Source of the DNA: Eutypella sp. D-1
Lineage: Eukaryota; Ascomycota; Sordariomycetes; Xylariales; Diatrypaceae
DNA length: 64,000 bases
NCBI GenBank assembly: GCA_023313575.1
Contig: JAJTTP010000028.1
Span: 62,001-126,000, forward strand
Reading direction: 5' to 3'
Shown: piece by piece, positions 2,463 through 35,242 of the stretch
How the letters are laid out: every line of letters begins with the position of its first letter
Position numbering within the stretch: the stretch's first letter is position 1
Made by a program: the position numbers and the translations under genes
The notes under the pieces: generated by a model
Database searches by the model: none
Seen by the model: the letters and a program-made list of their open reading frames with translations, nothing else
What the model was told of the DNA's origin: nothing

Positions 2463-4067
2463 ATGGTGATGCCGCAGAATCAGAAAAGACGGCACGCGGA
2501 CGACTCCTCGCAAGCCAATCACCCGAGCAAAAAGGGCGAGGAGGGCGAAAACTGCAAGTCGAGAGGTCATCATCAGTATTCTTCGAATTTCTCACCAAAC
2601 TTTTGGGATAACCTATCCAAGGTTTGGCTCACGTCTCCCGCCCTGCGAGAACTCGATCGGCGAAACGGCATTCAACCGCCCATAGAGCCCCCAGCATCGG
2701 ATCAAGTATATTCGAAGGACCTTATTCGGTTTGCCAGACACGGTGGTCCTGATCTCCGGCATCTTCGAGGGGTAAAACTTGAACTTGAAACTTGAAACTT
2801 TACCTGCCATCAACTAACATGGTCTACCTAGTGTCCAGAGCCAGAGCCAGAGCCAAGACTTAACACAACAGCTTCTAACCGATCTTCGAAACACTCTAGA
2901 TCCAGCGGAAATACGCAGAAGACCGACGCAACGAGCTTCCCTCCAAGCAGAGGAAAGTCATCTACATCCTCTCGCGGCCTCGAATTCGGACAACATTTAC
3001 ACGATCATGGCATTTACCTTAATGGTCGCAGGTCTAAAAAACCTCAGAACATACAGGAAATTCATAACGAATTGTCAAAGCCTCGCCCATCGTTGTCGCC
3101 CTCTCGTTTCTCTGAAGAGGCTTTCGAAGAGTTCAAAGTGAAGAATGAAGATGCGGTCTTGAAGAATGATCTAATGAGTGTGATTGTGCCGGAGCTGTGC
3201 GGCAATGCCGTCATTCCATCCAAGAAAAATATCTTGTACGCCGAGCTCAAACCCATCACGAACGAAAATTCAACTAAGCCTAAGCCTGATCTCTTTGATG
3301 GGTCTCATTTACAGGACATCAACCAGTTGGTTCGAGACGACATATATCCGTTGATTATCCCAACAAAACACCCAACCGTACCAGTGGCACCCAACATGTT
3401 CCTGGAAGCTAAGAGTGAGAGTGGGAATGCAGCTGTTATGAGACGACAGGCCTGCTACGACGGAGCCTACGGGGCTCGCGCCATGCATACCCTACAGAAT
3501 TACGGCGAGGAGCCGGTTTACGACAACAATGCCTACACGTTCAGTTCGACTTACCACAATGGTCAACTCACGCTATACTCCCACCATCCCACCGCACCAG
3601 CCACTCCTGGGGGGCGGCCGGAGTACCACATGACTCAGCTCCGAGTACTCACTATCACTCGCTCACCTAAGGCTTTTGTCGAAGGGGTTACTGCATTCAG
3701 AAATGCGAGAGACCTAGCGGGACGGTACCGAGACAACTTTATCACGGCCGCCAACACTCGCGCAATGCAATCCAATATCCCCACCAGTCACGCGAACCCC
3801 CATGATCTTCATTTAGAGGAGGATCCAGGTCAAGCCTCTGTAGCGCTGGATTACGGCGCCACGTCGACGAGTTTCGCGACAACTAGCCACAGCACAGACC
3901 CGACCAGCTCTAAACGTTCCAGGCAGTCACATAGCCCGCCGTCGAAGTCTGCAGACAGTCATTTGGATAAGAGCCGGACGCGTCCCAGCATAAGCCGGCG
4001 TGGCCAAGAGGCAATGGTTGACACGGGATCGGGGGAAGGGGAAGGGGAAGTAAGTAAGTCGCACTAG
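2463..4067 (+). CDS. Uncharacterised fungal protein, DUF7924-type, two exons
   Basis: Exons 2463-2771 and 2832-4067 join in frame around a 60-bp intron (2772-2831; GTAAAA donor, ACTAAC branch site, CTAG acceptor), giving 514 residues. The N-terminus is basic and low-complexity. The conserved core starts near residue 180 (ELSKPRPSLSPSRF). It includes PDLFDG (Asp about 256) and NMFLEAKS (Glu-x-Lys about 295-297), then RRQACYDGAYGARAMHTLQ and EPVYDNNAYTFSSTYH. This layout matches the fungal family I know as DUF7924, and the D...ExK spacing suggests a PD-(D/E)XK-like fold; that last point is inference. The C-terminus is Ser-rich and disordered. A second ATG two codons in could also be the start. 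The function is unknown. The gene appears intact although it lies between RIP-mutated and decayed repeats. Confidence 0.82.
2772..2831 (+). other. Intron in the DUF7924-type gene
   Basis: The donor is GTAAAACTTG, the branch-like site CAACTAAC lies near 2811-2818 and the acceptor is TACCTAG. Removing these 60 bases joins two phase-0 exons into one open frame with conserved family motifs downstream, so the intron is well supported. Confidence 0.8.
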
Positions 4068-22880: not shown

Positions 22881-25653
22881 CTTGTACTGACCGGACAGAG
22901 ACGAGAGCTTGGCTGGGGACTTATAGACTGGGTCGCCATCCTCGAGACGGACGAGTTGTCTTTATATCTATCCTGCATTTTACGTGGACAGGAGAACGAT
23001 ACTTATAGCGGACAGGAGGTGACTGATACTTTATTCTCGGGTTGTGGGGTGCATATGGTACCTTGCCTCGCTATCAGGCCGATGAGTTTACTTAATCATT
23101 GGACTGCTCGCTGCGAAAATACGACCGTATGGCACGCCTACGATCTCGGGACTTGCACTGTCCAATGGCATCTGGCCGGTAGATTGCTGCGGCTAAGTAC
23201 TTCCAGCGCCGAGAGATGATGATAAATGAACGGACCACTGCCCCTCCGAACGACCACCCCTGGAATATAAATTGCGAGGCTAGCTACGTGAAGACGTCCC
23301 TTGCTTTATACCCGGGATCAAGTGTACCAAGTACATGGGTTTTGGCGTGGTAAGGCCAGACTTCAGCGGATAATTTCGTTCCTACGTATAAGACTTTGCC
23401 GTGCTATCTTGGCATCGGCCTGTTACGGTCTTTACGGACTTCTAAACTGTATAAGAAGCTATATCTAGATGGGTAGGTCTTAATTTAGCAATGCTAACCG
23501 ATATAAGTCCTTCATCTGGAGGTATATAAAAGAGGGCCATTGCGAAGCTGTTAGGTCCTGCATCGAGTCCGATCTTAATGGCTAGGAACTTAAGAAGAAA
23601 AAGTATGCTGTTATATCTTAAAGCAGTACATATTGCCAGATGCACATGAACGCAAAATACATTATGGCAATCTGAATCCCTTTCCTTCTTTATTCGCTAA
23701 ATAATGCTTTGGTAAAGCCGATCGCGTTAGTACTGGGATGTCCAGGTATCCATAGCAGGTCTACGACGCGTTTTTGACGCGTTTAAGATAGCCCCTATCT
23801 CCACCTTTATTAGTGCTAGGACGTAGACATCCTACGCAATGATATTCACACCCCTCCTAAGCACCCCTCCTAACCTCTTAAAATTTAAACCTCTGCATAA
23901 TTGTTCAAGTACTGTAGCTAGGAATCCCTCCCAGCTTGCATCGGACTGCATGTACCTCATTGAGACGCGCTTATCCGATTATTTCGATGGTACATCAAAT
24001 ATTAGCTGTAAGCGCTATGCAATGCATTTGATATGCATCCACTGCCATGCATTATTTAGTACAAATTTTATCATATATATTTTATGCTGTGAATTTAAGC
24101 GCAACACCTGGCCATGTACTTATCTGGCATAAGCAACGCGCTTTGCTTTTTTTTTCTCGATGTATCTCTGCTATATGGCTACCGGCAATAAGCTTACTTA
24201 GGTATTCCACAGGTTGCCCTTGCAAGGCTGCTATTTAGCTAATATTAAGCCGGCTTATTATTGTAAAACACTGGACACTAACTGATTCTCTCTTACACCT
24301 ACAGCCTCGGTCCCTTTTATTAATAAGGTGTAGGCAATCCTGAAGAAACACGTTGAAATAATAAAGTTAAATAAATAAACCGATATAATGGGTGTTTTAA
24401 TCAGAATAATCCCTAAGAGTGGATTAATCATAATAAACATCATAGTCTCGGCCACCTCCTTATGTGTAAACAGCCATGTTTGAATCCAGCAGCATAGCGA
24501 ACAGGTATGCAGATCTCCGAGGCAGCAGTTATGGAGCAAGATACTGGTAGATATATCCTTGCTGCAGCATAACATAACAGATCTAAATATGCCACATCAC
24601 AGTCGTTATTGCAGTCATGGGCTGCAGTAGGTATAGGTGGTCCTTCTCGAGGACTATACACTCTAACCTTTAATGGGGCCGTGGCCACATAATCAACGTT
24701 AATGCTAAATGTTATGGATAAATTAGGGTATGTGGATGCGGGAAGACGAATCCCGAATTAATACGACTGGGAGTTTCCCTCGGGATAGGGAGAGTAGATC
24801 ATAGACATAAACCCGGGAAGGTCGGTTGCATCCCACTTACATTATATTTCGGGGCTTTAAGCAAACACAAGGTAGTCAAGAAAGGCCAGAATGAACAGAC
24901 CACACTGGAGTGAGAACGCAGGCCTTGCCTTGCTTATAAGAGCATCCTTGATACGGAGCGCGTCGTAACAAGCCGCTCCCGGTCGGGCTACAAGGTAAGC
25001 AAAGGCCACCTTTATACGACCAGGGTATCTGGTGCCCAGATTTGGTCCGATTTGTTACAGCGTTCTTATCTATACAGCTGTGCGGGAAGATGTATATGCG
25101 GTTATGTGAGAAGCGGTGCTGGATTTATTAACTGCTGTTATAACTCACAACTTAAACACCGCGGGCGCAAGGGAACCGGCAGTGCAAGGTGTAAAGAGAA
25201 GGCAATATCATTCCCACCTCTTAAGCGTGCATAGGATAAACAAAAGACGGATAGACGGCGGATAAGATACATAACAACGCAGCAGAGAAACTAGGAAGGC
25301 CAGGTTATATAACTCGCCTAGTAAGACTGGTGGACTGCTACATCTTATATAAGGGTAACGGTGTCTTCAGGATATTCACGGCCACGGGGATGAAAGCTAC
25401 TTACAGTGAGTTAGCTTATGAACAGATAAAGGTGGAACATGTTGTATAAGATCATATGTATAAGAGCTGTCAGTGTGCCCGCTATATAAAATGGCTTAGC
25501 AGGCTATGTTCAATAGATAAAAAGCGAGATTTGACAAGCAGGAATTAGGCAGCTTCGATAATGCACCTGGAATATCCTCTACCTTATAAAGAACACGATG
25601 AATAAAGGTGACTTCTAATAGTATCTACGGGCAGCCCTTTCCGTATATTAACA
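22881..25653. other. No supported gene; upstream of tyrosinase and left flank of the viral insert
   Basis: A plus-strand frame at 22869-23219 overlaps the tyrosinase start and has no motif. The rest holds short frames only and becomes somewhat AT-rich near 23.8-24.5 kb. Sequence up to about 25650 looks like old host or repeat DNA with ordinary third-base composition, in clear contrast to what follows. Confidence 0.4.
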
Positions 25654-25932
25654 TGGACGGGGGCGGACGAGAAGGTCTGCATGAGGATGAAGAAGAAGAA
25701 GAGGCCCGACCTGAGCAGCAAGAGCGGGATCTCCATCATGGTCTCCTTCATGAAGAGGATGGGCAAGATGGGGTACCAGAAGGGGGAGTACAGGGAGATC
25801 GTAACCAGGGTGTTCGACGTGATGGACATGGAGGACGAGGGCCAGATCGAGGGGATGCTGAGGGTCGTCCAGGCGCTGGAGACCGTGAAGGACGTCCAGA
25901 GCCTCCTGTACAAGATCGAGGAGAACAACTAA
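25654..25932 (+). CDS. C-terminal part of an unrecognised viral-type protein (5' truncated)
   Basis: The reading frame is open and codon-biased from the left edge of the insert (about 25654, starting TGG ACG GGG GCG GAC) to a TAA at 25930, about 92 residues. An internal ATG at 25681 opens with a MRMKKKK basic run, but the biased codons before it show that the true start was lost at the junction. The rest is predicted helical and Met/Glu/Lys-rich (EGMLRVVQALETVKDVQSLL). Its stop overlaps that of the minus-strand small gene next to it. I do not recognise the family. Confidence 0.6.
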   Translation, partial: WTGADEKVCMRMKKKKRPDLSSKSGISIMVSFMKRMGKMGYQKGEYREIVTRVFDVMDMEDEGQIEGMLRVVQALETVKDVQSLLYKIEENN

Positions 25933-26042
25933 AGCGTGATCGGGTTTTTGTTCGGCTTGTAGATCTTCATCCTGGTCCAGACCGCCGCGTGTACTGCTTC
26001 TGGATCCTGTACAAAAACCTGTTCTGGGTCCAGCCCGAACAT
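25929..26042 (-). CDS. Small 37-residue protein, unrecognised
   Basis: Starts at ATG 26042, 5 bases after the exonuclease stop (26048), and ends at a TAG (25929-25931) that overlaps the TAA of the convergent gene. It fills the only gap between two genes. The translation looks natural (MFGLDPEQVFVQDPEAVHAA, then MKIYKPNKNPITL). The second half follows the G/C-ending codon bias of the block; the first half does so less. It is too short for family assignment. Confidence 0.45.
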   Translation of the reverse strand: MFGLDPEQVFVQDPEAVHAAVWTRMKIYKPNKNPITL

Positions 26043-26047
26043 CAGGG

Positions 26048-26950
26048 TCAACTCGAAGTCGCGTCCCTGATCCTCTGCTCCATGGTCTTCGTCCTCTCGT
26101 ATAGGTTCAAGCCGACCAGGTCCATGTACTTCCTGGACGTGACCGACGCGCGGGCGTAGATCAGGGTGGGGACCTCGAAGACGACGTTCATCAGCGCCAT
26201 GAGAACTCCTGCGTCGCTGTCTGCATCATGTGCAACGTGATCGACCCAGGGAACGTACTTGTCCCTCAAGACGCCAAGCTTGGCGGTCTCGTTCTTCCCC
26301 ATCATCATCTTGAATATAACCACGGAGTCCGACAAGAGCACGTCAGGGGGCTCGATCCCGTGCTTGAGCATGGTCCTGATGACGTGCAAGTGGTCGAACG
26401 ACACGCCGTAGTGCGCGATCAACACGATCTTGACGTTCTTGCTCGACCCCTTCTCGGAGTTGATGGTCAGCGTCTCCAGCCAGTCCACAAAGGACTCCAT
26501 CACGGACTTGGCGTCCTGGACGAGGATGTTCCAGATGTCGGCCCTGAATACCCTGAGGATGGGGCTCTTGTTCGTCCTGACGCTGGTCCTGATGAGGCCG
26601 CTGAACGTGTAGCCCTCGTCCGTGCGAGCCCCGATCTGCTCGATGTCCCCGTCGTCGCTGAGCTCGATGTCCCCGTCGTCGCTGAGCTCGATGTCGTAGT
26701 ACACCGGGATGATGTTCTTGTGGTTCTTGACCTGAAGGGGAGCCCTCTCGACGTCCTCCTTGTCCAGGTGCGTCAAGCACTTGCCGAGGCCCAACCTTAA
26801 GGTGCAGGCGTCGAACTCCCCGACCTTCGAGGTGGAGTTGCACCCGATCTCGCTGCACTCGACGAACCGCATCATGTTGCTGGACATATTGGGGGTCATA
26901 CATAGGGAGATCCTCTTGCTCGTGATGAAGTCCTTGGACCACATCTTCAT
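26048..26950 (-). CDS. DEDDh-type 3'-5' exonuclease, viral type
   Basis: 300 residues from ATG 26950. The DnaQ-like exonuclease motifs are in order. ExoI is YYDIE...DIEQIGA (Asp86, Glu88). ExoII is AHYGVSFDHLHV (Asp186, with Tyr where Asn is common). ExoIII is HDADSDAGVL (His241, Asp246), preceded by a typical KLGVLRDKYVPW segment. It should remove nucleotides from 3' ends; proofreading or nucleic-acid processing in viral replication is inference. An N-terminal Cys-containing region (VECSEIGCNST) precedes the domain. A 24-bp tandem duplication inside ExoI (26641-26688) repeats ELSDDGDI. In-frame coding-like sequence continues upstream to about 27034 without an ATG, so the original N-terminus was probably longer and is now frameshifted (27027-27095). 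Confidence 0.78.
   Translation of the reverse strand: MKMWSKDFITSKRISLCMTPNMSSNMMRFVECSEIGCNSTSKVGEFDACTLRLGLGKCLTHLDKEDVERAPLQVKNHKNIIPVYYDIELSDDGDIELSDDGDIEQIGARTDEGYTFSGLIRTSVRTNKSPILRVFRADIWNILVQDAKSVMESFVDWLETLTINSEKGSSKNVKIVLIAHYGVSFDHLHVIRTMLKHGIEPPDVLLSDSVVIFKMMMGKNETAKLGVLRDKYVPWVDHVAHDADSDAGVLMALMNVVFEVPTLIYARASVTSRKYMDLVGLNLYERTKTMEQRIRDATSS
26641..26688 (-). repeat. 24-bp perfect tandem duplication within exonuclease motif I
   Basis: Two identical 24-base units lie side by side (26641-26664 and 26665-26688). They add eight residues, in frame, directly after the catalytic DIE, so the gene stays open. Confidence 0.9.
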
Positions 26951-27123
26951 CGGGATGGTCTTCCCGTCGACGGACGGGGTCTGCGTGTCGTACGTGTTTA
27001 TGATGCTTACGGTGTTGTGGATGTTCTTATTCGTTCAACCAGTAGCGGTGCAGCGACTGCAGACAGAAGACGAAGACTTTGCCGAGCATCAGCATCGTGA
27101 TCACATTCCTGACGAACTAGATC
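26951..27123 (-). pseudogene. Frameshifted upstream extension of the exonuclease gene, or its leader
   Basis: In the exonuclease frame 27034-26951 is open and protein-like (NTVSIINTYDTQTPSVDGKT). In the neighbouring frame a 22-codon ATG frame runs from 27095 to a TAA at 27027 (MLMLGKVFVFCLQSLHRYWL). A one-base change near 27028 separates them. Either the N-terminus is broken here, or the short frame is a leader peptide. The remaining bases up to 27123 form the divergent spacer to the plus-strand gene. Confidence 0.4.
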
Positions 27124-28242
27124 ATGGACTACTCGGAGTTGGACCACGCCATCGGCAACATGGAGAAGACCAAGTCGAGGGACTCGTCCCAGAACGGGAA
27201 CACCATCGGGATCATGGGGCCCGACCCGATCGAGGTCCTGACGAGCAGGCTCTCGATGGTCATGGCAGAGAACAACGAGTTGCAGAGCAGGGTCAAGGAC
27301 CTGGAGGAGAAGATGCAATCCTTCCTCTACTCGCTCAACGTCGAGAGGAACAAGGAGAACATCAAGCCGCCCTTCGCGGGGTATTTCGACTCGACCCCCA
27401 CCCCGAGCCAGAGGAGGCTACTCTCGAACGAGGACTCGATGGTCGAGCTGGACGACGTTAAGTCCATCGTCAGCTGCGACACCGACAACACCATTCCGAT
27501 CAGGCCCTTCAGCAGCGGGTCGAACTCCATCCCCTCGATGTCCAGCACGATGAGGCTGACGACGGCTACCTCGGCGATGAGGTACACCAACAAGAAGTCG
27601 GTCTGGGGCACGGCGTTGGCCTCCATGCCGGTCGCCATGGTCAGGTACTACATCACCAAGACGGGGCGCGGCAACATCATGTTGGACGAGACCCAGATCA
27701 TGAAGACGTGCATCTACTTGGCCCCGGTGCTCTACGAGATGTCGAACAAGGAACTCCCCGGCGTCAAGTCGGCGACCACCATGTACATGTCCACGGCAAT
27801 CTCGAGGGTCAACTCCACCGACGTCCCCCAGTCGACGGTCGAGGCCTGGCACGAGATGACCAAGACGCAGGACGGGATGGACATTATCACGGTCATCCAG
27901 ACGATGATCAAGCATGTCAAGAAGATGCCGGAGATCCTGGGCCACCCGTTGTCGAACATCTTGCCGTACATCCAGATCCCGGTCATCAGGAAGACTGACG
28001 ACGACAAGGTGATTTTCGCCATCACCAAGAACGTCAAGTTCCGCGAGAACCCGAGCCAGTGGGACACGTGGAGCTCCCTCTTGAAGAGCACTGCGCTGAT
28101 CAAGTACGCCAAGTGGAGGAGCGACGGGACCTCGGCCCCGGTGTGCGCCTCGAACATGATGGAGGACATGAAGGTCGAGGAGCTGGTCGACAAGAAGAAC
28201 ATCGGAAGGTTCGCCAAGCTCATGAAGTTGACCGACGACTAG
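27124..28242 (+). CDS. 372-residue viral-type protein with N-terminal coiled coil, unrecognised
   Basis: Starts at ATG 27124 and ends at TAG 28240. Residues about 38-72 form a likely coiled coil (VMAENNELQSRVKDLEEKMQ), followed by a Ser/Thr/Pro-rich linker (about 85-150) and a mostly helical C-terminal half (about 160-372). Codons follow the block's G/C-ending bias throughout, and no lesion is visible. The stop lies one base from the stop of the convergent gene. The architecture (coiled coil, disordered linker, helical domain) suggests a structural or oligomeric protein, but that is inference and no family is recognised. Confidence 0.65.
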   Translation: MDYSELDHAIGNMEKTKSRDSSQNGNTIGIMGPDPIEVLTSRLSMVMAENNELQSRVKDLEEKMQSFLYSLNVERNKENIKPPFAGYFDSTPTPSQRRLLSNEDSMVELDDVKSIVSCDTDNTIPIRPFSSGSNSIPSMSSTMRLTTATSAMRYTNKKSVWGTALASMPVAMVRYYITKTGRGNIMLDETQIMKTCIYLAPVLYEMSNKELPGVKSATTMYMSTAISRVNSTDVPQSTVEAWHEMTKTQDGMDIITVIQTMIKHVKKMPEILGHPLSNILPYIQIPVIRKTDDDKVIFAITKNVKFRENPSQWDTWSSLLKSTALIKYAKWRSDGTSAPVCASNMMEDMKVEELVDKKNIGRFAKLMKLTDD

Positions 28243-28243
28243 A

Positions 28244-28894
28244 TCAAGAGGATGATCTGGTCGCCTCGATCTTCTTCAACTGCATCGCGATGTACATCTC
28301 GTCCAACTTGCAGTCCTCGAAGTCCATGTCCTTCTTGACCGTGGTGCAGAAGTCCAAGAACGAGCAAAACTCCTCGGGCTCCTCCGTGAAGGTGGGCCTG
28401 AAGAGGTCGTCGTCCATGTCGTCGATGTAGGGCAGGGACTCGACCTCCGGGATGTACATCTTCTCGTCCATGGGCCCGGTCAGCCCGGTCTGCGTGTAGT
28501 AGCCCGTGCAGCTCCTCTCGCCCACGATCCAGTACAGCCCCGTCTCCTCGAGCACGTGCCTGATCCGATCCATGATCGACCACAGGTGCACGAAGGTGTT
28601 GGCGGTCGAGCCCTCCCAGGTGATGGTGTTGTGGTTGACGTCGTAGTTGTCGCTGATCATCATCCAGATGAAGACGTACGTCACCTCGGAGCAGGGCGGG
28701 GGCGGGAGGTTGGACCAGCACTTGTTCGTCAACTCGTACATCTTCATGTAGTTCTTGACCACCTCGGACAGCTTGGTCCTGCTCACGGAGATGAAGTTGC
28801 TGGTCCCCTCCACGACCTCGTCTAGGACCACCTTCGTCCTGCACGCCCTGGTCAACTGCTTCAAGACGTCCTTGCTCAGGCTGATCTCGTCCAT
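28244..28894 (-). CDS. 216-residue viral-type protein, unrecognised
   Basis: ATG at 28894, TGA at 28244-28246. It starts 10 bases after the stop of the upstream minus-strand gene and ends 1 base from the convergent gene, so it is likely co-expressed with its upstream neighbour. Visible features are a helical N-terminus, a short NLPPPPC turn, the aromatic/hydrophobic stretch VTYVFIWMMISDNYDV, and an acidic C-terminal part (LPYIDDMDDDLF). No transmembrane segment or known motif is clear. The frame is intact. Confidence 0.6.
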   Translation of the reverse strand: MDEISLSKDVLKQLTRACRTKVVLDEVVEGTSNFISVSRTKLSEVVKNYMKMYELTNKCWSNLPPPPCSEVTYVFIWMMISDNYDVNHNTITWEGSTANTFVHLWSIMDRIRHVLEETGLYWIVGERSCTGYYTQTGLTGPMDEKMYIPEVESLPYIDDMDDDLFRPTFTEEPEEFCSFLDFCTTVKKDMDFEDCKLDEMYIAMQLKKIEATRSSS

Positions 28895-28904
28895 GATGAT
28901 GATC

Positions 28905-30048
28905 TCACTGTTCCACCTCCGGATCGGACTCCTCGATCAGGACCTTCAACTCGAACTTCTCCATGTCACCGCACGCCTGCTCGTGGTTCTTCGTGATGTT
29001 CTCCTGGGTCTCCTCGTTGTCGCTCGCCAGGACCGGGATCATCGCCTTGGAGATCTTGGAGCAGATCCAGCAGTCGTAGCACATCCCCTCGATGTTCATG
29101 TGCCTGATCATCGTGTCGTAGTACCTGTAGTGGCCCATGACGTTCTTCATGTTGGAGGTGCACAACGGCATCGAGAGGCCGAACATGCTCTCGGTGAGCG
29201 TCGTGGAGACCAGGTACCTCGTGATGGAGGCGTCGGTCATGGGGACCGGGTGTAAGACGTACTTGCACGACTTGGCCTTCTCGAAGCACCAGCTCACGTC
29301 CCCGAAGTTCGTGATGTCCATCATCATGTGCACGCTCAGGTTGTTCTCCACCAACCCCTCGCACAGCCGGAAGATCTTCGTGTTCATGGTCAGGACGGTC
29401 ATCTCCGACATCTCATCCATCGTGGACCAGACCTGATTGATCAGGGTCTCGCAGTCGAGCGTGTTGCAGATCCTGACACACTTCATCTCGCGGGTGAACC
29501 TCTCGACGGACTCGGCCTTCTTCTCGTCCACGAGCATGTAGAGGGCCGTGTCCTTGTTCCACCGATAGTACTCGACGAACAACTTGAAGATGATCCCCAT
29601 CATGGTGACCTGGGTCGTGCTCATGATCTCCGTGACGATGAAGACCCCGCTCCCCGTGTTCTGCGAGTACATCCTCGAGGAGAAGCTGGACATGGCCATG
29701 ACGAAGCAGATCAACATGCCCGTGACCTCGTTGTGCCTCACGGGGGCGTTCCTCTTGATCTCGCTGTTGCACGCGGTGTCCAGGCCCCCGAGTGCGGTCC
29801 GAATCAGGGAGACGTCGGTCGGGCTCCTCTCGAAGGAGATGGAGAAGTTGGTTGTGCCTGCTGGAGGTGTGGTTGCAGTTGATCGAGATCTCCATCATCC
29901 TGATCAGCTCCTCGAGGACCAACCTGTCCATAAGGGGGTTCCAGTGCATGTTCTGCTGGCTGAAGAGGCCGATCTGCATCTCCATCAGCTCGAGGACGGA
30001 CTCCAGCGGCCCGCTGTTCGCGACTATGTTGGTCTTGATGAAATCCAT
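28905..30048 (-). pseudogene. About 380-residue viral-type protein split by a one-base frameshift
   Basis: The 5' part runs from ATG 30048 in one frame (66 codons, to 29851). The rest is in the next frame from 29849 to TGA 28905. The frames meet at a GTTGGTT word where one extra base (29850) breaks the codon pattern. On both sides codons end in G/C, and the protein reads smoothly across, so I infer a single gene with a 1-bp insertion. The C-terminal part carries a CxxCxxC motif (CYDCWICSK, at about 29081-29055) and is very Met-rich. The family is unrecognised. The gene diverges from the plus-strand gene at 30118 with a 69-bp spacer that could hold both promoters. Confidence 0.6.
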
Positions 30049-30117
30049 GTGGTACAGAGAACACGTAGATCACACTCTAGAGGTACTTCGAGACCGTGGT
30101 ACCGGAACTGGAACAAG

Positions 30118-31050
30118 ATGAGCAACACGTTGATCTTCAACAAGGATTACAAGGAGAAGTCCCAGAGGAAGTACCTCCACGACTCGGGGGACAAGGAGAG
30201 GACCAGGCGTGAGGACGCGATCAGGTGCGTGGACTTCTGGCGGGACAGGTTGCTCAAGATGTACACGCCCCTGGTGGCTAACGAGATGCTCTCGGCGTTG
30301 TTCCGGCAGAGGGGGGTCCCGAGCGTGGACTGCTTCACGGAGCGGATCATCCCCTCGTTCAGGGTCGCGATGGGGTTCCCGCCGGGAGTCGAGGACACGC
30401 TCCGGAGGATCCTGAAGATCGGGAAGTGGGCCACGGGCGAGTACTCGATGACGATGTGGACCATGGAGCCCGTCGTCGCCAGCGTCCAGATCAGGGGGAA
30501 CGACGTCGACCTGCAGACGGCCAAGGACAAGTACTTCGACGACATCGAGGTGATCGACATGCTCACGACGAAGACCCACCGGTGCAACGTCATCGGCAAC
30601 GACATCAGGGGGAGGTGGGCCGGGTGGATCGCCTGGAAGGGGCACATCGACCAGGGCGGGTCGGAGCCCTACTGCGTGAGCTGCAACGTCTGCGGCCCCT
30701 CGATGATGTTCGCGTTCTGCACCAGGGAGTCGAAGGTGATGCAGCTGATGATGACGCCCAAGACCATCATGATCTTGTCCTCGTACTGCAGGAAGGCCAA
30801 CATGGAGCACGGGATCACCGCGCATCAGATCACGTCGTCGTCGACGAAGCTGAAGATCCAGAACGGGCTGGACAGGGCGAGGTCCACGCACCTGACCTTG
30901 TACGGGAACGGGCCCATGCAGTTCAACGGGTCCCCGGACGAGATCGAGAAGTTGTACTACGTGGCCTTGCAGATGGTCAAGATGGCGATGGACTCCGAGA
31001 TGGGGAACTTCGTCTCGTCGCTCAGGAGGGCCGACAGGGGTTTTGGCTAG
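30118..31050 (+). CDS. 310-residue viral-type protein with a weak TBP-like C-terminal segment
   Basis: ATG 30118, TAG 31048-31050; the stop overlaps the TAG of the convergent gene in a CTAG palindrome. The frame stays open upstream of 30118, but the codon bias begins at this ATG. A Cys cluster (YCVSCNVCG, residues 185-193) could bind zinc. Residues about 258-290 (LTLYGNGPMQFNGSPDEIEK) resemble the strand-turn-strand plus helix repeat of TATA-binding proteins, which several large DNA viruses encode. The resemblance is short and I rate it weak. No lesions are seen. A role in viral transcription is a hypothesis only. Confidence 0.6.
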   Translation: MSNTLIFNKDYKEKSQRKYLHDSGDKERTRREDAIRCVDFWRDRLLKMYTPLVANEMLSALFRQRGVPSVDCFTERIIPSFRVAMGFPPGVEDTLRRILKIGKWATGEYSMTMWTMEPVVASVQIRGNDVDLQTAKDKYFDDIEVIDMLTTKTHRCNVIGNDIRGRWAGWIAWKGHIDQGGSEPYCVSCNVCGPSMMFAFCTRESKVMQLMMTPKTIMILSSYCRKANMEHGITAHQITSSSTKLKIQNGLDRARSTHLTLYGNGPMQFNGSPDEIEKLYYVALQMVKMAMDSEMGNFVSSLRRADRGFG

Positions 31051-32819
31051 ATCCGGTACTTCAACACGTGCTTGACCACGAACTGGGTCAAGACATCGGA
31101 GACGACGTTCGAGTAGATCTCCTGCTCGGACCTCTGGATCTCCACCAACGTCTTGTTCAGCATGTACGCGCTGCACAAAATCTGCTCCGCGAGGCAGTTC
31201 CTGTAGTCCTCCGTCTCCTTCTCGGGGTTGATCTCCATCTCGGTCCAGGACATCGTGATCTTGTCCCTGTAGCCGTCCACCAGGATGTAGTTGGCCTTGT
31301 AGGCCCTCACCTCGTCGTAGACCGCCTTGTAGAAGTCCAGCGACATCCTCCTCTCCTTCAGCTTGATGCACCTCTCGCACTTGTTAATCAGGACCATGAC
31401 GAGACACACACCCTCGTACAGCGACGTCATGATGTTGATGCACTCCAGCGCCTGGTAGTTCGTGTTCTGGTCCAGGACGACAGTGGTGTACCCGAGGCAC
31501 TCGTTCCACTCGATCATCGCGTGGGTCTTCTTCAAGCAGCAGTCGCAGTACCCGACCTCGAGGAACGACATGTAGCGGCTCCACAGCACCGTGGGGTCGA
31601 GCTCCATGTCGATGGCCGTCTCCGAGTAGGAGATCCTGTGCTTGAACATCGTGCGGTAGATCCTGTGGATGATCTTGGAGTTCTGCTCTGCACATCTGCA
31701 ACCTGACTGCCTTGGGAGACCTGAGCGACTGCTCCTCAGGAACAGGATCTACGACAGGTTCAGGTCCCCCAGGAAGATGGTGCCCAGGATCGTGCTGGTG
31801 TCCGTGTACGTGATGAGCCCTGACCTCTCCGACTCGTTCCTCAAGATGTTCTTCAACCACCTGATGTCCGAGCAGGTCACCGACGTGTACCAGTCGAGCC
31901 CCAAGCTCTTGAGGGAGTACACGTTGACCGAGAAGCCGTACATCAGGCTCCTCACGTTCTCCGACAAGTAGACGAAGAAGTAGGACACGGCCAACCTCTC
32001 GCTCGGCGTCAGCATGACGGAGTCGATCTCCTCGATCATGGACGTGATCTGGTACGCCCTCCTGAGCTTCTCGATGTAGCTGTCCTGGTCCCTGATGCAC
32101 TCCAGCCTGGTGTACAGCGAGGACCTCTCCCTGATCTCGTCGATCCCGTCGAGGACCAACTCCGTCCCGGCCTTCGACTTCACGAGGCCGTACGCGACCT
32201 TGAACTCGCCCAGGAGCGTGCAGATGGCGGGGGTCCTCTCGTTCTGGGCGCCGTGCTTCTGCCTGTCGATCCCCATCTAGTATACGGCCCTCGTCATCTT
32301 CGTCAACGCGAGACAGCACGTGGTCCTCTTCATGTTCAGGTTCCCCCTCTTCAGAGCCGGGATCTCGGGGACGTACCTGGACATGATGGTTACGTCGCTG
32401 TTGTGCATGTCCACGGTCGTGCCCATCATCATGCCCGCCCTCATGTACCCGTACGGGACGGAGAGCCCGTGCCTCCCCATGGCCGTGTTGAACATCCCCT
32501 GCTCGGACCTGGGGATCGTCGACTTCCAGTAGTTGTCCGACCTCATGACGTTGTACATCGTGTTCCACGACTTCGGCTTCAAGAGCATGTCGTCGTACAT
32601 CGGGCCGCCCTTGTGCTCGGACATCTCGTCGAACGTCATCGTGGTCAGGATCGCGGGGTCCACCCAGGATGGGATCTCGTTCTCGACCGCAACCTTGTAC
32701 GCCTCCTCGAAGATGGGCTTGGGCGGGTCCAGGGTCCAGATCTCGTTCCACCGCCTCTCGGCCTCCTCGGAGCCCTGCCTGGTCATCGGGACGAGCGCCC
32801 AGACCTCGTCCCCGTCGAA
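31047..32819 (-). pseudogene. 5'-truncated, RNA polymerase largest-subunit-like protein with two in-frame TAGs
   Basis: One minus-strand frame runs 591 codons from the right edge of the insert to TAG 31047, interrupted only by TAG at 32277-32279 and 31749-31751. The surviving sequence begins with FDGDEVWALVP and then an SEEAERR segment. This recalls the Mg-binding NADFDGD loop and following VPQS...EA region of cellular and viral RNA polymerase largest subunits. The downstream part is too divergent for me to align. The first TAG is followed at once by ATG. The third section has two Cys pairs (CDCC at 35-38 and CERC at 91-94, counted from ATG 31649). Alternatives are three adjacent genes (169+, 175 and 200 codons) that share a frame by chance, or a 57-bp intron around the second TAG. 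Confidence 0.5.
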
Positions 32820-33507
32820 AATGGGGCTTTTCTCCTACATGCTTGCGCTTATTATCTGATAAGTCTGATCGCACTTAAGTTAATCGTTATAATCCATAGC
32901 CCCACCTATCTCCAATAGGGCATCTAACATGTAACAGGCCACCAAGAGCGGCACAGGACGCAGTTATAAGGCCATTTAAACAGCAACGCTTGGATGGAAT
33001 GGGATATCAGGTAACGTAATAAACTTAAAAGCCTGGGTATTTTTATTTAATCTATCCATAAGCATTTATAACCCTCTTAGCTAAAAAGAAGTACTGCATA
33101 TTATTTTTAAACTGTTTAAAAAAGCTTTTAAGTTAAAAAAAACCTACATATAATACTTTATTATTACGTATTACTTTAAAAATCTTATAACGTAAAGGTA
33201 AGGCAGTAAAAGAATTTTATTATAACTTAAATATTATAATAATACACATATGCTTAAAATAATAACTTTTATAAATAATATAACCGGAGATATTATATTA
33301 ATTAATAATTACTTTTATAATAAGTATTTATTATAAATTATAAAAAGTTAAATAGTTATAAGCGTTATAACGTAATAACTTAATAATAATAAATGATTTT
33401 AAAAAATAAATATAATTAAATATTTTTATTTAATAAGATTAAATACGGTTAAAACCGGTAAGTTTTATATATTAATTAATAATAACTAATTACCGGTTAA
33501 AAACCGG
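32820..33507. other. Right flank of the viral insert, grading into AT-rich DNA
   Basis: The G/C-ending codon pattern stops abruptly at about 32819. The next 180 bp have ordinary composition and no frame. From about 33 kb the sequence becomes RIP-like AT-rich up to the LTR of element A. No gene, terminal repeat or tRNA is visible. Confidence 0.5.
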
Positions 33508-33915
33508 TGTTATAACCGGTCGGGCCATTAGGCCGAATGGGGCTAACATAATAAAAAAAGATCCCTAACTCCAGTTCTGAAGAAAGAGACAGCCATATGC
33601 GCCACATAAGGATCGGTTAAATCGATAATAATCTTAACAATATTAGATCGTTATACTCGGATACGATCCTAACGATTTAATAATAATTATATATTCCAGT
33701 ATTAGGAATAAAGGATATAAATAATATATAATTACGTTTATTACCTTTTTTTTAAATAGTTTTTAAACTTATTAACTTATAATATAATTTAATTACTTAA
33801 AACATTTTTTTTTATTATCATTAAACGTGATTATTTATTACTTAAAACTTTTAATACTTTTATTAATATAAACCCCTCGATTAGATTAATAATTAAGAAT
33901 AAACCGGCCGTTATA
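33508..33915 (+). repeat. 5' LTR of element A
   Basis: Begins TGTTATAACCGG and ends in GTTATA, a RIP-altered form of the GTCACA terminus of the better-preserved LTR at 42115. It is similar along its length to the LTRs at 35243, 41685 and 46725, including the shared TCGGGCCATTAGGCC and CCCCTCGATTAG-type words. Confidence 0.85.
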
Positions 33916-35242
33916 CGTTATAAGCTTTTATTTAATAATATTATTAATTTTAAGCAATATCCGATATTATGTTTTTTTTAAACCAAAACTTTTAACAAAT
34001 TATTAAGTTTTTATTTAAACGAATCGAATAAATCGAATAAACGGTAATTATAATTATAACGTAAAAGATTACGCCCGTTAAATTTAAGCCTAAAAAACCT
34101 GAACTTTATAATAATATTACCTCCGTATAACCTTTTTTTATTATAGCTGTAATTTATTTATATTAATAACGTTATATGCTAATTACGGAAGTTAATAAAA
34201 TTTTTAACATTATTTTATATTTTACCGAAAGGATAATTTAATGGTTTAAACTTATTTTAAATCTTTTCGTAAAAGTAAAAAAAAAAGAAAATTACAGAAA
34301 TTAAACGTTTTTTCGAGAAATATAAAAGCTTTATAAAAAAGGTGAAAGCTAATTACGGAAACCCGGATAAAGCTTAAGCCGTTACGTAATAACTTTTAAG
34401 TTTTAAATAAAAAAAGGCAACTTATACGTACGCCGCATAATTTAAATAGTTTACCGTTAAAATAAAATAAATTAACAATAAATCCTTTATCGATACGTTT
34501 TATTAAAAACTTAAAAACTTAATTAAGGATAAAATCAGTACGTAAAATAAACTAAATGCTTTTAATAAATTTATTACTTTAATAATTAAAATCGATAATA
34601 AATAATTTAAACGACGATAAAAGAAAAAAGGATATTATATACTTAAAGGATTTAAAAGATATTAAAATAATAAGAATTAAAATTAAAAACCTATCGATAT
34701 ATCTTACGGAACGGCATTAAAACTTATATCGCTCGATATAACACGAAAAAGTAAACGATATGTTAAATGTTATAACTATAATAAAATAGGGCATTTTAAA
34801 AAGGAATATAAAAGATTTAAATAAAACGGAAATTAAAAACTTATATTAAAAAAAAGATAACCTTTAACCGAAGGAAGGATATTTAAAATAATTTAACGAA
34901 TAAATTTTAATAACGAAACTTACCGATAAGGATTATAAAAAGTTAAATAATTAATTTAAGCCGTAATAAAATAATAACGGCAATAATAAACGGACGAAAA
35001 TGTTAACAGCGATAAAAAAAAAAGCTTTTACGGAAACTTATTTTAAAAAGAAAACCATAAAGCAATTAAATAATTAGCTTAAAAAACGACGCGATTATAA
35101 ATTATAAAAAATATACGGCATATATATTAAACGATTTTTATAACGTTTTAAAAAGTAACGATTTAAAATCTATTTATAATAACTTTATATCTGGGATAAA
35201 TTTATTAGCTAAAAAATTTAAACAAAAACGCTATATGTTTTA

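What the first reader, a model, noticed from the sequence alone, without database searches (positions are those of the whole stretch)
25654..32819. A dense multi-gene viral-type fragment inserted in a RIP-active fungal genome
Eight or more foreign genes sit on both strands with overlapping stops and 1-170-bp spacers, no introns, strong G/C-ending codon bias and Met-rich proteins, all cut off at both edges. Nothing in the flanks resembles it. Such packing is typical of large dsDNA viruses, and integrated pieces of these are poorly known in filamentous ascomycetes. It may represent an undescribed viral lineage infecting the fungus or a close ancestor.
Basis: partly seen in the sequence, partly recalled or inferred. 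Interest (0 to 1): 0.95.

Follow-up and report, generated by a model that had tools for sequence, protein, structure and literature searches.

The report
Fossil of unknown fungal DNA virus
A 7-kilobase single-copy block in a mould's chromosome looks like a decayed piece of an undescribed, compact DNA virus or virus-like element; relatives of its genes turn up in other fungi and environmental sequence, which matters because DNA viruses of moulds are almost unknown.

Summary
Window 25,654-32,822 is a single-copy, intron-free block coding on both strands: eight or nine genes, one cut at each edge, with 96% G/C at third codon positions, between an ordinary left flank and RIP-degraded AT-rich repeats. 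It is a fragment of a real, uncurated element family. The three proteins I could search have 16, 13 and 34 relatives, with gene linkage on four contigs (shared contigs inferred from equal lengths). For one gene, 16 of 34 relatives have a longest contig of 19-33 kb. Other relatives lie on long contigs of Claviceps and Schizothecium.

Best reading: an endogenised, decayed piece of an undescribed compact DNA virus or virus-like element of fungi that brings part of its own transcription machinery. No capsid or replicative polymerase gene was seen; only a quarter to a third of a presumed genome is present.

The parts
25654..32822 (.). whole inserted block (boundaries good to a few bases)
   Evidence: codon-bias and coding-frame limits; one copy found in the assembly
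25654..25932 (+). 3' end of a gene cut by the left junction (about 92 codons), function unknown
   Evidence: frame open from the junction, GC3 0.99
26048..26950 (-). DEDDh 3'-5' exonuclease, TREX/Exuperantia-like fold, with N-terminal C-x4-C...C-x2-H motif; the frame is open upstream to 27034 but has no start codon where relative P0001 starts
26638..26695 (-). 24-bp tandem duplication inside the exonuclease gene (8 residues repeated)
   Evidence: absent from all 16 relatives aligned
27124..28242 (+). 372-aa protein: N-terminal coiled-coil-like part plus conserved C-terminal domain, function unknown
   Evidence: 13 relatives incl. Claviceps; weak coiled-coil family matches only
28244..28894 (-). 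216-aa protein, function unknown
   Evidence: ORF with GC3 0.97; no significant family match
28905..30048 (-). gene of about 380 codons interrupted by a frame change near 29870-29890; function unknown; a 34-residue stretch matches the C-terminal part of P0007
   Evidence: two abutting frames with the same codon bias; BLASTP E 2e-8 for that stretch
30118..31050 (+). 310-aa TBP-like (TATA-binding-protein saddle) protein
31047..31649 (-). 200-aa ORF, function unknown; its stop overlaps the TBP-like gene's stop
31749..32276 (-). 175-codon ORF in the same frame as, and directly after, the next part; possibly one interrupted gene with it
   Evidence: GC3 0.99
32277..32822 (-). gene cut by the right junction; begins FDGDEVWALVP (RNA polymerase largest-subunit-like motif, suggestive) and ends at a TAG at 32277-32279

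Best explanation
The block is a decayed, single-copy chromosomal fragment (about 7.2 kb) of an undescribed compact DNA virus or virus-like element of fungi, whose genome I infer to be roughly 20-32 kb with genes packed on both strands. SHOWN: a family of linked genes in several fungi and environmental data, the insertion as assembled, a TREX-like exonuclease fold (predicted) with its catalytic residues, and lesions in the copy. SUPPORTED BY PREDICTED FOLD ONLY, weakly: a TBP-like protein. SUGGESTED BY A SHORT MOTIF: an RNA polymerase largest-subunit-like gene at the right edge. INFERRED: the free element replicates as DNA, transcribes its genes from its own A/T-rich promoters with its TBP-like factor and possibly its own polymerase, and uses the exonuclease for 3'-end processing in replication or repair, or to remove host or competitor nucleic acid. 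A piece was captured, probably by end joining, in a gene-poor site next to RIP-degraded repeats; being single copy it escaped RIP and decays slowly.
Confidence: 0.7

Rival explanations
1. A fungal nuclear mobile element or its cargo (transposon, Starship-type element), not a virus.
For: Relatives lie on long contigs of Claviceps (45-214 kb, 7 of 13 for the 372-aa gene) and Schizothecium (7.08 Mb); the block lies near a repeat with many copies.
Against: One copy only; no significant Pfam match, so no recognised transposase or integrase, among ten ORFs; no introns; codon use unlike the left flank; 16 of 34 relatives of the TBP-like gene have a longest contig of 19-33 kb.
Confidence: 0.12
2. A cytoplasmic linear plasmid (yeast-type virus-like element) lineage of filamentous fungi, with protein-primed replication and own RNA polymerase, no capsid.
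For: Compact two-strand gene packing, DNA element with hints of its own transcription. Known VLEs rely on their own RNA polymerase, capping enzyme and helicase (PMC8472843, passages).
Against: The VLEs described there are 73-76% A+T (PMC8472843, passages); this block is 58% GC with GC3 96%. The part of the VLE gene table that I saw (ORFs 1-9) lists no TBP-like or exonuclease gene. No significant Pfam match among ten ORFs.
Confidence: 0.2
3. A fragment of a nucleocytovirus (giant virus) endogenised in the fungus.
For: Seven of the 50 viral models listed as fold matches of the 310-aa protein are named TBP, TFIID or B263R homologues of such viruses (E 0.027-0.12). PMC10640383 (passage) cites single-virion nucleocytovirus genomes thought to infect Ascomycota.
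Against: No significant Pfam match among ten ORFs; 16 of 34 longest contigs are 19-33 kb. The capsid search of the genome gave none, but its control was silent, so it does not count.
Confidence: 0.1
4. An RNA-virus genome copied into DNA.
For: [quoted passage not shown]
Against: Genes alternate between strands in one piece; a fold like a DNA-binding transcription factor (weak); relatives in genome assemblies. The molecule type of the relatives' sources was not shown.
Confidence: 0.04
5. A contaminant or chimeric assembly joint.
For: Sharp composition change at both edges; no reads available.
Against: It lies inside a 355,692-bp contig, carries lesions typical of an old insertion, and has relatives on long contigs of other fungi.
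Confidence: 0.06

Closest known systems
Yeast cytoplasmic linear plasmids / virus-like elements (pGKL2 type)
   Same: Small DNA element, compact genes, possibly own transcription machinery
   Different: Those described are 73-76% A+T and carry DNA polymerase, capping enzyme and helicase (PMC8472843, passages); here 58% GC, GC3 96%, a TREX-like exonuclease and a TBP-like gene, and no VLE gene recognised in the fragment
Nucleocytoviricota and their endogenous regions (e.g. the 1.5-Mb region of Rhizophagus irregularis, PMC10640383)
   Same: DNA virus remnant in a fungus; TBP-like factors occur among their proteins
   Different: Genomes of 70 kb to 2.5 Mb (PMC10640383, passage); here longest contigs often 19-33 kb, no hallmark gene seen, no sequence similarity found
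TREX/DnaQ DEDDh 3' exonucleases (and Exuperantia)
   Different: 11-17% identity in the listed rows; extra N-terminal C-x4-C...C-x2-H motif; only weak RNase_T matches by sequence (3 of 17 rows)
TATA-binding protein (TBP), cellular and NCLDV
   Same: Predicted saddle-like topology; a local motif NG-x-(M/V/L)-Q near where the TBP repeat has its own (recalled, and seen by eye in the host frame)
   Different: Middling fold score, extra N-terminal helices, no detectable sequence homology

Membership tests
DEDDh 3'-5' exonuclease | RNase H-like exonuclease fold | tested here: met
DEDDh 3'-5' exonuclease | catalytic D-x-E, D, H-x4-D | tested here: met
   present in the window copy and in 14 of 17 rows overall; altered or missing in P0004, P0013, P0016
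DEDDh 3'-5' exonuclease | sequence-profile match (PF00929 RNase_T) | tested here: inconclusive
   3 of 17 rows match weakly, best E 0.0025, the window copy not; hhalign with four of five host RNase_T frames no better than shuffles
TATA-binding protein | two-repeat saddle fold | tested here: inconclusive
TATA-binding protein | detectable sequence homology to TBP (PF00352) | tested here: not met
   no such match in 34 members scanned; hhalign with two host TBP-family frames below shuffles
RNA polymerase largest subunit | (NAD)FDGD(E) double-psi-barrel motif and following conserved regions | tested here: inconclusive
   FDGDE at the junction; hhalign score 25.36 against best of 100 shuffles 24.89, other seven window pieces 10.7-22.3; no Pfam or PDB match
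Nucleocytoviricota | double jelly-roll major capsid protein (PF04451) | tested here: inconclusive
   none in the own genome, but the control was silent; fragment only
Nucleocytoviricota | large genome, 70 kb or more | tested here: inconclusive
   longest contig 19-33 kb for 16 of 34 relatives, completeness unknown
Yeast cytoplasmic VLE | very A+T-rich genome (73-76%) | tested here: not met
   block is 58% GC
Yeast cytoplasmic VLE | terminal inverted repeats with protein-primed B-family DNA polymerase | not testable with these tools
   fragment has no ends; PF03175 search of the own genome silent, control silent too

The most novel reading that the evidence does not exclude
A new high-rank lineage of compact (about 20-32 kb) DNA viruses infecting ascomycete fungi, unrelated in sequence to any described virus, that carries its own TBP-like initiation factor, an RNA polymerase subunit and a TREX-like exonuclease, that is widespread in environmental data, and that repeatedly endogenises in moulds.
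Probability: 0.4. Interest if true: 0.95.

Novelty: new variant of a known kind. Interest (0 to 1): 0.85.

Why it matters
PMC10640383 (2023, abstract) states that no double-stranded DNA virus infecting fungi was known, though it cites hints, including single-virion genomes thought to infect Ascomycota (passage). A lineage with traces in Claviceps, Schizothecium, Hortaea and this fungus, and with 19-33 kb contigs already in public data, would give concrete hosts and sequences in which to look for a free DNA virus of ascomycetes, and a test case for how a small DNA element comes by its own transcription machinery.

Tried and rejected
Family scans of ten ORFs against Pfam and PHROGs gave no significant match, nor did five proteins at a looser limit. 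Member scans gave, for the 372-aa alignment, weak matches only, many of them coiled-coil models, and for the TBP-like one single chance-level matches. Three of 17 exonuclease rows hit RNase_T weakly (best E 0.0025). NCBIfam and PADLOC were not searched. PDB sequence searches were empty or chance-level. IMG/VR scans with two single proteins (which reach close relatives only) and three alignments found nothing; nor did one scan of GTDB contigs with the exonuclease alignment or one of phage records with the 372-aa protein. Rfam found nothing in the window. Own-genome searches for DNA_pol_B_2 and the NCLDV capsid were silent with silent controls, so they say nothing. A helicase guess by eye for the 28905-30048 gene found no support and was dropped. 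Profile comparison of the exonuclease alignment with four of five host RNase_T frames scored 12.7-17.8 against a best of 19.0 in 40 shuffles of one of them; the TBP-like alignment with two host TBP-family frames scored 14.4 and 15.5 against a best of 20.8 in 60 shuffles of one of them: no better than chance, so predicted folds alone carry these two assignments. A terminal inverted repeat was suspected from similar edge letters but not tested statistically and is not claimed. Searches for a published description of such a family: nine, none found (open-licence PMC only, no bioRxiv; most results judged from listings). Papers: PMC10640383, start of abstract and passages; PMC8472843, start of abstract and passages; all others, search listing only. 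Motif names (DEDDh, FDGD, TBP repeat motif) and the Starship/Polinton comparisons are recalled. P0049 (171 aa) was left out of alignment A3; P0017-P0020 were left out of A4, which was made but not used further.

Full report
WHAT IS THERE. The window lies at C21:62001-126000 of a 48.5-Mb assembly in 72 contigs. Between 25,654 and 32,822 the sequence changes from host-like (2001-25650: GC 48%, RIP composite -0.06) to a block of 58% GC (composite -0.65), and then, after about 180 bp, to RIP-degraded AT-rich DNA (33508-64000: GC 22.5%, composite +1.00). The right flank from about 33.5 kb on belongs to a repeat with many copies (120 matches, of 644 candidates 40 scored). The 1.45 kb left of the block (24200-25653) found only itself, and so did the block. 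Nine open segments of 150 codons or more with GC3 of at least 0.9 occur in the block, two of them antisense mirrors; 200 dinucleotide shuffles and the left flank have none, although shuffles do hold open segments of up to 343 codons. Third positions are 96% G or C.

GENES. From left to right: a gene cut at the left edge (+); a 300-aa exonuclease (-); a 372-aa protein with a coiled-coil-like start (+); a 216-aa protein (-); a gene of about 380 codons whose frame changes once (-); a 310-aa TBP-like protein (+); a 200-aa protein (-); and a gene cut at the right edge (-) that carries an in-frame TAG, directly followed in the same frame by a 175-codon ORF. Lesions: the TAG at 32277-32279, the frame change near 29,870-29,890, an 8-residue tandem duplication in the exonuclease that none of its 16 aligned relatives has, and no start codon at the place where relative P0001 starts. 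The TAG could also be a true stop between two abutting genes. A second TAG in that frame, at 31749-31751, looks like a true stop, because the codons after it look less coding (by eye). So this is most likely a decayed copy.

RELATIVES. The closest is P0001, 96% identical to the exonuclease, longest contig 20,630 bp; no equally close relative of the 372-aa protein was returned, and for the TBP-like one only a 171-aa protein, P0049, 99% identical over 36% of the query. Linkage is conserved: relatives of all three genes have a longest contig of 20,959 bp and of 16,107 bp, and relatives of the exonuclease and the 372-aa gene 4,578 bp and 5,342 bp. That these are the same contigs is inferred from equal lengths; for Claviceps citrina the locus tags are consecutive. 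Longest contigs for the TBP-like family: 19-33 kb in 16 of 34 cases, 283,578 bp in one, at most 16.1 kb in 17; one of the 16 is from Hortaea werneckii (26,847 bp). For the exonuclease: 19-33 kb in 5 of 16, 7.08 Mb in one, at most 16.1 kb in 10. For the 372-aa protein: 45-214 kb in 7 of 13, all Claviceps, and at most 27.2 kb in 6. Long contigs are taken as chromosomal: Schizothecium vesticola (the protein lacks several stretches, 97 gap columns of 300) and Claviceps (four proteins, P0017-P0020, carry the conserved domain twice). The TBP-like family is deep: the window groups with P0030 and P0031 (SH-aLRT 100) inside a 16-row clade (99) in a quick tree of 34 rows. Nothing was found in IMG/VR with five queries, in GTDB contigs with one, or in phage records with one.

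MECHANISM. The most likely story is a small DNA virus or virus-like element that replicates outside the chromosome, brings a TBP-like factor (and perhaps a polymerase) to transcribe its genes, and uses a 3' exonuclease in its DNA metabolism. The near-absence of A and T at third positions could keep A/T-rich promoter elements confined to the short spacers; this is speculation. A piece of it joined the chromosome and decays there. Shown: block, lesions, relatives, linkage (with the inference named above), predicted exonuclease fold with catalytic residues. Inferred: free DNA form, own transcription, mode of capture.

COMPARISON AND VERDICT. It is not filed in a known virus family. The A+T richness that marks the yeast virus-like elements is not met; NCLDV hallmarks could not be tested in a fragment. 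No published description was found in nine searches of the open PMC library, which holds no preprints and few subscription journals.

Noticed in passing
window 25654-32822: Third codon positions hold only 1.4% A and 2.4% T, an extreme bias for a block of 58% GC; cause unknown.
   Followed up: partly
P0017-P0020 (Claviceps purpurea relatives of the 372-aa protein): Four relatives carry the conserved domain twice in tandem, as if an endogenous copy had been internally duplicated.
   Followed up: no
window 32819: The right junction falls directly before the FDGDE codons; probably chance.
   Followed up: no
window 33508-34300 and many places in the genome: A RIP-mutated repeat with many copies (best rows 80-90% identical) lies right of the block; CpG observed/expected is above 3 in the AT-rich tract.
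   Followed up: partly
window 3072-4067 (+): A 331-aa ORF, one of only two ORFs of at least 180 aa in 2000-25600; not searched.
   Followed up: no
P0007 residues 419-452: A longer exonuclease relative (485 aa) carries a 34-residue stretch matching the window's 28905-30048 gene, hinting at gene fusion or a different gene order.
   Followed up: partly
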